From: an uncultured bacterium
GTDB lineage: Bacteria; Patescibacteriota; Gracilibacteria; Absconditabacterales; Absconditicoccaceae
Reading direction: 5' to 3'
Assembly: GCA_937872535.1 (NCBI GenBank)
Contig: CALMTC010000004.1
Location: 1 to 64,000, forward strand
DNA: 64,000 nt
Positions 2,571 to 50,625 of the stretch are shown piece by piece. A model generated the notes under the pieces. That model made no database searches. It was given only the letters and a program-made list of their open reading frames with translations, and had not been told where the DNA came from. A program made the position numbers and the translations under genes. Position 1 is the stretch's first letter. The number at the start of each line of letters is the position of its first letter.

Positions 2571-4208
2571 ATGATGACATTATCAGAAAGAGAAGTTCGT
2601 ATGAGTAAGAGAGAGCAGATTAAAAATTTTGGTATTTTTCCTTATGCTCAAAAATTTGATAAAAAAACTCAAATCTGAGCGTTGATAGAAAAATATTGAG
2701 CTGAACTTACTTCAGATTCTAGTCCTTTTCGCGATATTGATCAAATTATCTCTTTATCTGATAAAAGTATTTTTACTGCTGGTCGTTTGATGCTTTTTCG
2801 TTCGCATGGCAAACTTTCTTTTGGAAAACTCATGGATGAGACTGGAGAAATTCAGCTTATGTTTCATAGAGATAACTGTGGCATTATTTCAGCTGATGAA
2901 ATTGTTTTGAAAAATTTGTGAGAGTGAGAGCAGGAAATTTCAGCTTATAAGTTTATAGAGAAATTTGTGGATGTCTGAGATTTCCTTGGTGTAAAGTGAG
3001 AACTTTTTTATACTCATAAGTGAGAGTTGACTATTTTTGTCGAGGAGTTTAAGCTTTTGAGTAAAGCAATCCAGCCACTTGGTGATAAATTTCATGGGAT
3101 TGCTGGCCAAGAAACTGCTTATAGACAAAGATACTTGGATATGATTTTTAATCGTCCAGTTTTGGAGAGGATGAAGTTAAGATCAAAATTTCTCAAGGTG
3201 ATTAGAGATTTTTACGATCAAAAATGATTTATCGAGCTAGAGACTCCAGTGCTTGGAAACTCAGCCTCTGGAGCGGCAGCAGCTCCTTTTGTGACTCATC
3301 ACAATGATTTCGATCTGGATATGTATCTTCGTATTTCTCCTGAAACTTCTCTGAAAAAAGCGACTGTTGGGATGCTTGAAAAAGTTTTTGAGGTGGCAAA
3401 GGATTTTCGTAATGAAGGTTCAGATCCTAGTCATATCCAAGAATTTACGATGATAGAGCACTATGCTGCTTATCGAAATCATGAAGATAATATGCAATTT
3501 ACTGAAGAGATGTTTGAGTATATTTTTGCTCAGATACCTCAGCTCAGTAAAACAGTTTCGGTGGTTGATAAGGAATGAACGGTTAGACAAGTTGATTTTC
3601 AAACTCCTTGGCAACGCATCGATTATGTACAGCAGATTAAGAAAGATAGTGGTATTGATGTCTCATTGTATAGTTCAGCTGATGAACAGAAATTGAGGGC
3701 TGATATTCTCGAGGCTGGGCATCATCGAGTTGGCATCGAACAGCAAGGGACGGCTACTATGATAGATTATCTTTATAAAAAAGTGACGAGACCCCAGATT
3801 ATAGGTCCAGCTTTTATTGTCAATTATCCTAAAACGATGCAACCTTTGGCTCGTGTTAGTGATCAAAATTCTCAAATAGTGGAGCAGCGACAGCTTTTGA
3901 TCAATGGTCGAGAGTGTATCAAAGCTTATTCTGAGCTTGTAGATCCAGTTCAGCAGCAGGCTAATTTTGATGAGCAGGCTAAGGCTGTGGCTCAGTGAGA
4001 TGAAGAAGCGACGAAATGAGATGACGACTTTGTCAAAGCTATGGAATATGGAATGCCTTGTCAGTCTGGTCGATGAATGTGAATAGATCGTATTTTTGCT
4101 TTATTGCTTTCAGATGGACAGCCGATTAATATTCGTGATGTGGTGCTTTTCCCTTTGATGAAGCCAGAAGTGAAATATACTAGGGATGAAGAAAATGGAG
4201 AAGAGTAG
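2571..4208 (+). CDS. lysS: Lysyl-tRNA synthetase, class II
   Basis: 545 residues; a tandem ATG at 2571/2574 gives the start. It charges tRNA-Lys in the cytoplasm. An N-terminal OB-fold anticodon domain is followed by the class II core: motif 2 with FRNEGSDPSHIQEFTMIEHY and motif 3 GMGIDR near the C terminus. The residue before the motif 3 glycines is CGA (Trp) and the glycine after it is UGA, so both reassignments meet here. The SYSE-like element appears as AYSELVDP. The gene is read through UGA at about a dozen sites. It sits 44 bases upstream of the FKBP gene, so the two could be co-transcribed. Confidence 0.95.
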
Positions 4209-48773: not shown

Positions 48774-48870
48774 CCCTTCGACAGGCTCAGGGACCAGGAG
48801 GCAAGCAGGTTCAGGAAACGAATTTTTTTTAGTCGATTGCCATCCTCGCAGTACTGCGGGACAATGACGA
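48774..48870. repeat. REP family A plus family B
   Basis: A copy 48774-48796 and B copy 48835-48870, in the same order and nearly the same spacing as at 11854. The B copy overlaps the start of the next + gene. Confidence 0.8.
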
Positions 48871-49838
48871 CTCTTATTTTTTTTGCTTATCCATCATTTA
48901 CTGAAATTTTTTTTTCAAGCAATGGAATTTTTTTTGGTTGCAGTTCAGCTGCGATTTTTTATAGTGAGGCTATGAAACTTTTTGCTGATAATCATCATCT
49001 TCTCAGTGTTCAAGAGCTGGAATCTCACAAGGAATTTTCCAGGAGTTTTGGTAATCTCTCGATCTCGACGGCTGACAAAATCGTCGTAGGATACCATAAA
49101 AAACAGCCACTTTTTCTCAACTGGAAAAATGTCTGAGCTGGTATGGGAGTATTTTTTTTCATTTCAAGAAAGGTTTTTTTTCTGGAAAATGTGAATGTGA
49201 AATTTTTTGTTTATGGGCTTAGTATTTATCAGATTTTTGATGAAAACCAGGGAAAAAATTTTGTATGATTTTATAAAATTTCTCAGGAAAGAAAAAATTT
49301 TCTGATGAAGAGTGTCGAAAAAATAGCACCTGAGTATAGTTTTCAGCAGGAGCCTAGTTTTTCTTTACAGTGAAAAACTGATGATCTCAAGAGTATTTTT
49401 GCTGAGCTGGAAAATGCTGATGGAGCTGAGAAGCTGAGTTTTTTGTTTTGATTGGCGGTGGCGTATGGAAAGCGAGATACCAAGGGAGATTCTCTCTTGG
49501 CGTTGAAGATTTTTGTGCCGTATACGATGGAAATTCGCAGATTTGAAGACCAGATTAAAAATTTTTTTAAGAGTTTGAATGATGAGTTGTTGATAGTGAC
49601 ATATGATTTTGTGAAAGATGGATTTGGCGAGATAATTCAGGTGAGTATTACAGATTGGGAGATTTTGTCGCAGTTTGGGAAGTGGTTGAGTGATTATCAG
49701 ATTGAAAATGTTTCTCAAATCACTAGAAAGGAGACGCACGCTAGAGTTAAATCTCAGCTCATTTCTTTTCTGGAAACTGAAAAAGTTGACAGCTCGCTGC
49801 TCGACGGCTGAGTGCTGAAATTGCTCGAGGCTGATTAG
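48864..49838 (+). CDS. Unknown protein, about 324 residues
   Basis: ATG at 48864 (it overlaps the REP copy; a GTG at 48837 is unlikely). Begins MTTLIFFAYPSFTEIFF, contains two mixed alpha/beta halves: NLSISTADKIVVGYHKKQ, then KLSFLFGLAVAYGKRD and a beta-rich LLALKIFVPYTMEIRRF. No signal peptide. A LAGLIDADG-like reading of the second half was considered but is not supported. UGA-Gly used several times. The tRNA gene follows after 12 bases. Confidence 0.6.
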
Positions 49839-49850
49839 TCTTTGCTATTT

Positions 49851-49922
49851 AGGGCGTTGGTGTAATCGGTAACACAACGGTCTTCGGAACCGTTTTTGTG
49901 GGTTCAAGTCCTGCACGCCCTG
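49851..49922 (+). tRNA. tRNA-Trp with UCG anticodon (reads CGA/CGG)
   Basis: 72 nt, all four arms. Acceptor AGGGCGT pairs with ACGCCCT; D stem GTGT/ACAC; anticodon stem ACGGT/ACCGT with loop CTTCGGA, so the anticodon is UCG (34-36); T arm GTGGG/CCTGC with TTCAAGT; discriminator G73; CCA is not encoded. The A1-U72 pair, G73, and the CGGTCT..AACCG anticodon arm match bacterial tRNA-Trp and not tRNA-Arg. It is the expected decoder of CGA (and by wobble CGG) as Trp, the codon use seen in the surrounding genes. Confidence 0.88.
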
Positions 49923-50130: not shown

Positions 50131-50625
50131 ATGAATGAATTAGAAGTCAAAATATTAAAAATCGATAAAGATGCTATGATTGCTAAGGTGGAGTCTTTTT
50201 GAGCTCAGAAGATTTTTGATGATACGATAGTGGCTGATTTTTATAAAAATGCTGATGGAAAGAAGCTGAGATTTAGAAAATATGGGGCTGAAAATATTCT
50301 TACTTACAAAGAAAAAATCCAGACTGAAACATTGATGGAAAATCTAGAATACGAAGTTGTTATCGATGATTATGAGACATTTGAGAAGATGCTGGTGGCT
50401 CTTTGATTTGTGAAATACGGACATTCATCAAAGCATAGGACAGTTTATAAGCTGGGAAATATTGTTTTTGATTTTGATAAATATGAAAATATTCCTTGGT
50501 TTGTGGAAGTAGAGTCAGATAATGAACAAGATCTAGTAAAATGAGTAGCATTATTGGGGTATACAATGAACGATACTCATACTTTGACGGAAAGTCAGGT
50601 GAAAAAGCATTATGGAGTGGAGTAG
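50131..50625 (+). CDS. CYTH-domain protein (CyaB/ThTPase-like)
   Basis: 164 residues. Starts with the ExExK hallmark as NELEVKILKID, then KLRFRKYG, LTYKEK, YEVVIDDYETFEKML and a late WFVEVESD. These provide the Arg/Lys/Glu tunnel that binds triphosphate. Actual substrate (inorganic triphosphate, thiamine triphosphate or ATP) is not predictable. Terminator follows. Confidence 0.85.

What the first reader, a model, noticed from the sequence alone, without database searches (positions are those of the whole stretch)
49851..49922. tRNA-Trp with UCG anticodon, the decoder of the sense reassignment
The body and identity features are those of tRNA-Trp (A1-U72, G73, anticodon arm) but the anticodon is UCG instead of CCA. 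This is the molecular partner for CGA=Trp and stands directly in the window that shows the codon use. It also raises how TrpRS accepts a UCG anticodon, since the CCA anticodon is normally a strong Trp identity element.
Basis: partly seen in the sequence, partly recalled or inferred. Interest (0 to 1): 0.92.

Follow-up and report, generated by a model that had tools for sequence, protein, structure and literature searches.

The report
Tryptophan tRNA that reads CGA
This bacterium of the Absconditabacteria kind reads the codon CGA, which means arginine in nearly all life, as tryptophan, and the window holds the one tRNA gene that does it; the code change was published in 2021, but the comparison adds how the tRNA probably arose and how its synthetase may have adapted.

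Summary
Positions 49851-49922 (+) encode a complete tRNA with anticodon UCG, which ARAGORN labels Arg. It has A1:U72, G2:C71, G3:C70, G4:C69 and G73, and U20 instead of the A20 that ArgRS needs. It is the only UCG tRNA in the 98.8%-complete genome. There is no ACG tRNA and no detectable TadA, and the three true Arg tRNAs (GCG, UCU, CCU) all carry A20. Aligned to a standard-code relative, CGA codons meet Trp 24 times and Arg 4 times, three of the four in one apparently foreign gene; CGY codons meet Arg 70 and Trp 0. UGA is glycine.

The kind is known: Shulgina & Eddy 2021 reported CGA/CGG=Trp with Trp-type tRNAs in Absconditabacteria. Three additions look new. (1) With identity positions masked, the family's UCG tRNAs group with sister-lineage tRNA-Trp(CCA), not tRNA-Arg(UCG), which suggests descent from a Trp tRNA. 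(2) The TrpRS loop that reads C35/A36 (Thr-Asp/Asn-Ser in 62 of 75 other TrpRSs) is altered in 8 of 8 CGA-using relatives but intact in the one relative that almost lacks CGA and lacks the tRNA. (3) CGA is now about as common as UGG, and coding-strand bias sets the choice between them. Charging itself is untested.

The parts
49851..49922 (+). tRNA-Trp(UCG) gene, 72 nt, CCA end not encoded; acceptor stem AGGGCGU/ACGCCCU, 4-nt variable loop
49884..49886 (+). anticodon UCG, pairs with CGA (and possibly CGG by wobble)
   Evidence: pattern match from 49882
49851..49854 (+). A1 G2 G3 G4, 5' side of the Trp-type acceptor pairs A1:U72, G2:C71, G3:C70, G4:C69; the first five pairs are identical to those of this genome's tRNA-Trp(CCA)
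   Evidence: identity role from PMC9976931
49918..49922 (+). C69 C70 C71 U72 and discriminator G73
49864..49871 (+). D loop AATCGGTA with U20 at 49870, lacking A20, the main ArgRS determinant
   Evidence: role of A20 from PMC9976931
2571..4208 (+). Class II tRNA synthetase gene (lysyl type by recall; Pfam PF00152) in the window: CGA at codons 302, 447 and 501 falls where the standard-code relative G103 has TGG
48837..49838 (+). Upstream neighbour, open frame of 333 codons ending 12 bases before the tRNA; no Pfam family; context only
50131..50625 (+). Downstream neighbour, CYTH-domain protein; context only

Best explanation
The gene is the decoder of CGA as tryptophan in a member of the Absconditabacteria (Patescibacteria), which also reads UGA as glycine. 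Shown: the tRNA sequence, its Trp-type and non-Arg-type identity elements, its uniqueness in the assembly, and the meaning of CGA in protein-coding genes. Inferred: TrpRS charges it through G73, A1:U72, G2-G4:C69-C71 and C35; it escapes ArgRS mainly because U20 replaces A20, although it keeps C35; it reads CGA and probably CGG, with a second Trp-type tRNA(CCG) for CGG; and TrpRS tolerates G36 in place of A36 because Ser227 and Asp226 (E. coli numbering), which contact A36 and C35, have changed. Also inferred: the gene descends from a tRNA-Trp whose anticodon changed, not from a recharged tRNA-Arg(UCG).
For: Identity: R1:U72 (25 of 29) or G1:C72 (4 of 29), G73 (29 of 29) and no A20 (29 of 29) in the family's UCG tRNAs, against A20 in 17 of 17 non-family UCG tRNAs and A73 in 16 of 17 (three table cells have a gap or a shifted end, and one of the 17, L251, is a probable contaminant in a family genome). 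tRNA set: only Arg(GCG, UCU, CCU), all with A20; Trp(CCA); Trp-type CCG; Gly(UCA); one UCG. TadA not found, control found in 12 of 14 genomes. Codon meaning: own CGA aligns with TGG 71 and CGA 52 times in relative G042; in standard-code G103, W 24 and R 4, against CGY W 0 and R 70, Fisher p = 4e-19. Examples: the conserved Trp of TyrRS GSDQWGNI, and Trp positions in sigma-70 (TYATWW), MsrB (CGWPSF) and an alanyl-type synthetase (families). Alignment-free: CGA/(CGA+TGG) falls from 0.75 to 0.23 as coding-strand G+T at fourfold sites rises, rho -0.58, while the sum stays at 96-134 per 10,000 codons. Origin: unbiased outgroup tRNAs with identity positions masked place the family's UCG tRNAs with outgroup Trp(CCA), bootstrap 79. 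TrpRS: canonical T-[DN]-S in 0 of 8 CGA=Trp family members, 62 of 75 others, and in the family member that lacks the UCG tRNA; residue roles from PMC12135181.
Against: No charging, proteomic or modification data. The window genome's own TrpRS keeps Asp226 and changes only Ser227 to Thr, which also carries a hydroxyl; G042 keeps Ser227 and changes Asp226 to Ala. The TrpRS comparison is not corrected for shared ancestry. The tRNA tree rests on 54 columns with bootstrap 79. One gene, pyruvate phosphate dikinase on contig C2, has CGA at four conserved Arg positions. MnmG is not found above cut-off, so what keeps U34 from reading the Arg codons CGU/CGC is unknown. CGG is too rare to test here: 1 W in 3 aligned positions in G103 and 1 W in 5 in G042.
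Confidence: 0.93

Rival explanations
1. CGA is still arginine and this is a divergent tRNA-Arg, as ARAGORN labels it.
For: It has a UCG anticodon, keeps C35 and G36, and G73 is allowed in Arg tRNAs; this genome's Arg(GCG) and Arg(UCU) are scored G73.
Against: It lacks A20, which every true Arg tRNA scored here has. CGA aligns with Trp 24 to 4 outside the family and never with the Arg codons among the ten commonest partners in G042.
Confidence: 0.02
2. CGA is read ambiguously, mostly Trp with some Arg, because the tRNA keeps ArgRS determinants C35 and G36.
For: The pyruvate phosphate dikinase gene (C2:72848-75541) has CGA at four Arg-conserved positions and no TGA in 77 glycine codons.
Against: The total absence of TGA in that gene (p about 5e-14 under host use) points to recent transfer from a standard-code donor rather than ambiguity; outside it only one of 25 W-or-R positions is R.
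Confidence: 0.07
3. The UCG tRNA descends from the ancestral tRNA-Arg(UCG), which lost A20 and gained Trp identity, as proposed in the 2021 paper for tRNA(CCU) in the AGG=Met Bacilli.
For: It needs no anticodon change, whereas CCA to UCG needs two. Some outgroup Arg(UCG) tRNAs have a similar anticodon arm and D stem (L200).
Against: With identity positions masked, 20 of 22 by mean and 21 of 22 by best match (one tie) are closer to outgroup tRNA-Trp(CCA) than to tRNA-Arg(UCG). The 4-nt variable loop and GTGT/ACA[CT] D stem match one class of outgroup Trp tRNAs and not most outgroup Arg(UCG) tRNAs, which have GCTC/GAGC and mostly 5 nt.
Confidence: 0.22
4. The TrpRS loop changes are lineage drift unrelated to the anticodon.
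For: The substitutions differ between members (TST, TDT, TSV, TDA, TAS), and a few unrelated bacteria also depart from T-[DN]-S (13 of 75). The family is about 50-60% identical, so many sites differ.
Against: Neighbouring contact residues Thr225, Lys274 and Glu155 are invariant, and the one family member without the UCG tRNA keeps TDS.
Confidence: 0.45

Closest known systems
Absconditabacteria code with CGA and CGG = Trp and UGA = Gly (Shulgina & Eddy 2021, PMC8629427; NCBI table 37 by recall)
   Same: Same three reassignments, a CGA-reading tRNA(UCG) and a tRNA(CCG) classed as Trp-type by G73, no A20, R1:U72; low GC; no tRNA-Arg(ACG), Arg(GCG) instead.
   Different: The paper reports CGA below 37 per 10,000 in aligned Pfam domains and calls the codon not yet rebounded; here it is 55.5 per 10,000 over all frames of 100 aa or more, 51.4 in genes aligned to G042 and 30.3 in those aligned to G103, nearly equal to UGG. 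The measures are not identical. The origin of the tRNA and the TrpRS are not treated there for this clade.
CGG = Trp in Anaerococcus and in uncultivated Bacilli (order RFN20)
   Same: A Trp-type tRNA with G36 in place of A36, so TrpRS must accept the same change at position 36.
   Different: Anticodon CCG only; CGA stays Arg and tRNA(UCG) is absent there.
AGG = Met in a clade of Bacilli
   Same: Arg codon reassigned through a tRNA of new identity.
   Different: There the tRNA appears to be a recharged tRNA-Arg(CCU), by gene neighbourhood; here the body resembles tRNA-Trp.

Membership tests
Absconditabacteria CGA/CGG=Trp, UGA=Gly code | CGA aligns with conserved Trp | tested here: met
   W 24, R 4 against G103; TGG 71 against G042
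Absconditabacteria CGA/CGG=Trp, UGA=Gly code | CGG aligns with conserved Trp | tested here: inconclusive
   CGG is 3.2 per 10,000; 1 W in 3 and 1 W in 5 aligned positions
Absconditabacteria CGA/CGG=Trp, UGA=Gly code | UGA read as glycine with tRNA-Gly(UCA) | tested here: met
   TGA aligns with Gly 311 of 497 in G103; tRNA at C18:7276-7349
Absconditabacteria CGA/CGG=Trp, UGA=Gly code | tRNA(UCG) with G73 and without A20 | tested here: met
Absconditabacteria CGA/CGG=Trp, UGA=Gly code | tRNA(CCG) with G73 and without A20 | tested here: met
   C11:166305-166377, A1:U72, G73, U20
Absconditabacteria CGA/CGG=Trp, UGA=Gly code | Taxonomic placement in Absconditabacterales | tested here: inconclusive
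Its family is the only one of those sampled in the class with a recognisable Gly(UCA) tRNA at this sensitivity; named relatives are labelled Gracilibacteria or Patescibacteria
bacterial tRNA-Trp | G73 and A1:U72, with G2:C71, G3:C70, G4:C69 | tested here: met
   sequence at 49851-49922; determinants from PMC9976931
bacterial tRNA-Trp | anticodon CCA | tested here: not met
   anticodon UCG; this is the reassignment itself
bacterial tRNA-Trp | charged by TrpRS | not testable with these tools
   needs aminoacylation assay
bacterial tRNA-Arg | A20 in the D loop | tested here: not met
   U20

The most novel reading that the evidence does not exclude
The capture of CGA came from a duplicated tRNA-Trp whose anticodon changed to UCG, together with substitutions in the TrpRS loop that reads C35 and A36, so that the enzyme accepts G36. 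The tRNA and the synthetase changes would then be coupled: the family member that lacks this tRNA and nearly lacks CGA keeps the ancestral loop. This would be a readable example of synthetase and tRNA co-evolution behind a sense codon reassignment.
Probability: 0.4. Interest if true: 0.62.

Novelty: new member of a known kind. Interest (0 to 1): 0.45.

Why it matters
Sense codon reassignments in bacteria are few, and for this one it was not known where the new tRNA came from or how a synthetase that reads the anticodon tolerated the change. The comparison gives testable answers to both, in a genome where CGA is already about as common as UGG for tryptophan. It also matters practically: annotating such genomes with code 25 puts Arg at about 1,300 positions in the 240,000 codons sampled here that are Trp.

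Tried and rejected
(1) First origin test gave 29 of 29 for Trp descent, but most of its outgroup Trp tRNAs had been fetched because they resembled the queries; it was replaced by an unbiased pattern-based sample, which agrees less strongly. (2) A strict pattern search first suggested that genus g12 and others lack the UCG tRNA; a covariance model found it in all but a few. In g17 (G155) and g15 (G130) no UCG tRNA was found; for G155 the CGA count agrees, for G130 the data are thin. (3) A Gly(UCA) search to find sister families with UGA=Gly found only this family, but TrpRS genes of families f12, f14 and f22 hold in-frame TGA, so that search was not sensitive enough. (4) Idea that Trp was moved to CGA to avoid misreading of UGG by tRNA-Gly(UCA): the prediction that conserved Trp prefers CGA was not met (W at 24 of 79 CGA against 43 of 107 TGG, p = 0.22). 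(5) Promoter and terminator scan near the tRNA gave nothing beyond chance.

Full report
What is there. The window holds one tRNA gene, 49851-49922 on the + strand, anticodon UCG (Rfam tRNA 61.1 bits; cloverleaf fold). ARAGORN calls it Arg because it goes by the anticodon. Read base by base it is AGGGCGU UG GUGU AAUCGGUA ACAC A ACGGU CUUCGGA ACCGU UUUU GUGGG UUCAAGU CCUGC ACGCCCU G. It has A1:U72, G2:C71, G3:C70, G4:C69, C5:G68 and G73. These five pairs and G73 are the same as in this genome's own tRNA-Trp(CCA). G73 is the major determinant, and G2:C71, G3:C70, G4:C69 and A1:U72 are determinants of B. subtilis and E. coli tRNA-Trp (PMC9976931). Position 20 is U; A20 is the main determinant for E. 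coli ArgRS (same source).

The tRNA set. The assembly (1.25 Mb, 23 contigs, 98.8% complete) has 40 tRNA matches, all of which were read. UCG occurs once, here. There is no ACG tRNA, and TadA, needed for inosine decoding of CGA, is not found. Arg tRNAs are GCG, UCU and CCU, all with A20. A second Trp-type tRNA has anticodon CCG (C11:166305-166377: A1:U72, G73, U20). tRNA-Trp(CCA) lies at C8:54350-54421 and tRNA-Gly(UCA) at C18:7276-7349.

Codon meaning. About 668 open frames (240,000 codons) from fetched stretches of the genome and the window were aligned codon by codon to two relatives, with CGA masked as X. Against G042 of the same family, own CGA aligns with TGG 71 times and CGA 52 times, and no Arg codon is among the ten commonest partners. 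Against G103, a standard-code genome of the same class, own CGA meets Trp 24 and Arg 4; own CGU/CGC meet Trp 0 and Arg 70 (Fisher p = 4e-19). Three of the four Arg cases are in one gene (below). CGA stands at the conserved Trp of TyrRS (GSDQWGNI), and at Trp positions of sigma-70 (TYATWW), MsrB (CGWPSF) and an alanyl-type synthetase (families). In the window itself, three CGA codons of a class II synthetase gene at 2571-4208 meet TGG. TGA meets Gly 311 of 497 times. CGG is too rare to judge here.

An independent test without alignment. If CGA and TGG are synonyms, strand-specific mutation bias should trade one for the other at a constant sum. Sorting 547 genes by G+T at fourfold sites, CGA falls from 91 to 22 and TGG rises from 30 to 74 per 10,000 codons, their sum with CGG staying between 96 and 134; CGA/(CGA+TGG) runs from 0.75 to 0.23, rho = -0.58, p = 5e-34. 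In standard-code G103 CGA is nearly flat (45-58), with a weaker rho of -0.26 driven by TGG. In the window, - strand genes have 122 CGA and 27 TGG, + strand genes 35 and 53. Overall CGA is 55.5 and TGG 60.1 per 10,000. In a 20-kb stretch of a named relative (L082, Candidatus Gracilibacteria isolate Tobar13m-G42) CGA outnumbers TGG 39 to 16. So CGA has rebounded, at least here, beyond the early stage described in 2021; the two ways of counting differ, so the comparison is approximate.

Spread in the family. UCG tRNAs with G73 and without A20 occur in 29 of 29 sampled members of the family across many genera. Seventeen UCG tRNAs outside the family set have A20, and 16 of them A73; one of the 17 (L251) lies on a small contig of a family genome and is probably a contaminant. 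A lineage of the family, g17 (G155, GC 0.23), gave no UCG tRNA by three searches, and in 171 kb CGA is only 3 per 10,000; the window genome's CGA sites there are TGG 20 times. Whether g17 lost the tRNA or never had it is open.

Where the tRNA came from. Outgroup tRNAs of the class were fetched by patterns covering only the anticodon loop and T arm. The anticodon loop, 1:72, 73 and the D loop were masked, leaving 54 columns. Of 22 distinct family UCG tRNAs, 20 are closer on average to outgroup Trp(CCA) than to outgroup Arg(UCG), and 21 by best match with one tie. The tree joins them to a group of outgroup Trp(CCA) tRNAs with D stem GTGT (bootstrap 79), away from outgroup Arg(UCG) (clade of 18, bootstrap 95). 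All 22 share a 4-nt variable loop and GTGT/ACA[CT] D stem; the family's present Trp(CCA) tRNAs have GCTC/GAGC and 5 nt. The simplest reading is that an older tRNA-Trp body took the UCG anticodon. The support is moderate; 54 columns cannot prove it.

How TrpRS may accept it. In E. coli TrpRS, Ser227 bonds to N1 and N6 of A36, Asp226 to N4 of C35, Thr225 and Lys274 to C35, and Glu155 to G73 (PMC12135181). UCG keeps C35 but has G36. In the window genome's TrpRS (C10) the loop is Thr-Asp-Thr. Eight CGA=Trp family members have TST (4), TDT, TSV, TDA and TAS; none has canonical T-[DN]-S, which 62 of 75 other bacterial TrpRSs have (p = 5e-6, not corrected for ancestry). The g17 member that lacks the tRNA has TDS. 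Gly271, next to C34, is Lys in 7 of 8 family members and 7 of 75 others, and Lys in g17 too, so that change is not specific. Thr225 (apart from 4 Met), Lys274 and Glu155 are conserved. This is a correlation with a structural rationale, not a demonstration.

What does not fit. The pyruvate phosphate dikinase gene at C2:72848-75541 has no TGA among 77 glycine codons and has CGA at four positions that are Arg in maize dikinase, while both neighbours are rich in TGA. It looks like a recent import from a standard-code donor; if expressed here, these Arg would become Trp unless CGA is ambiguous. MnmG, which would restrict U34 wobble, is not found above cut-off (control found in 14 of 14), so the boundary between CGA/CGG (Trp) and CGU/CGC (Arg) is not explained.

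Known or new. The code, and Trp-type UCG and CCG tRNAs, are published for Absconditabacteria (PMC8629427). The window adds a new genome of that kind. Descent from tRNA-Trp, the TrpRS loop, and the strand-driven equilibrium of CGA and TGG were not found in the papers searched. Those papers are the open-licence part of the literature only.

Noticed in passing
G000:C2:72848-75541 (L167:12848-15541, - strand): Pyruvate phosphate dikinase gene with no TGA in 77 Gly codons and CGA at four conserved Arg positions, set among genes rich in TGA: apparent recent import still written in the standard code.
   Followed up: partly
window, genes on - and + strands: Choice between CGA and TGG for Trp follows the coding strand: 122 CGA/27 TGG on - strand genes, 35/53 on + strand genes.
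   Followed up: yes
G155 (genus g17), loci L260, L302-L321: Family member with GC 0.23, CGA at 3 per 10,000 codons, no UCG tRNA found, and canonical TrpRS loop TDS: possible state before or after the capture of CGA.
   Followed up: partly
G000:C6:375-446 (L019): Degenerate tRNA with an apparent four-base anticodon (caaa), its 3' part identical to the CAU tRNA (probably initiator) at C6:36-107; Rfam score only 33 bits. Probably a decayed duplicate.
   Followed up: no
G000:C11:166767-170297 (L038:6767-10297, + strand): 1176-aa open frame with no TGA in 108 Gly codons and no CGA, no Pfam family; either strong codon selection or foreign origin.
   Followed up: no
families f12, f14 and f22 of the same class: TrpRS genes with 3 to 21 in-frame TGA, so TGA is sense there too, although their Gly(UCA) tRNA was not found with this genome's sequence as query.
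   Followed up: no
G000, whole assembly: MnmG (GIDA) not found above cut-off (control 14 of 14 genomes), which leaves the modification of U34 in all UNN tRNAs open.
   Followed up: no
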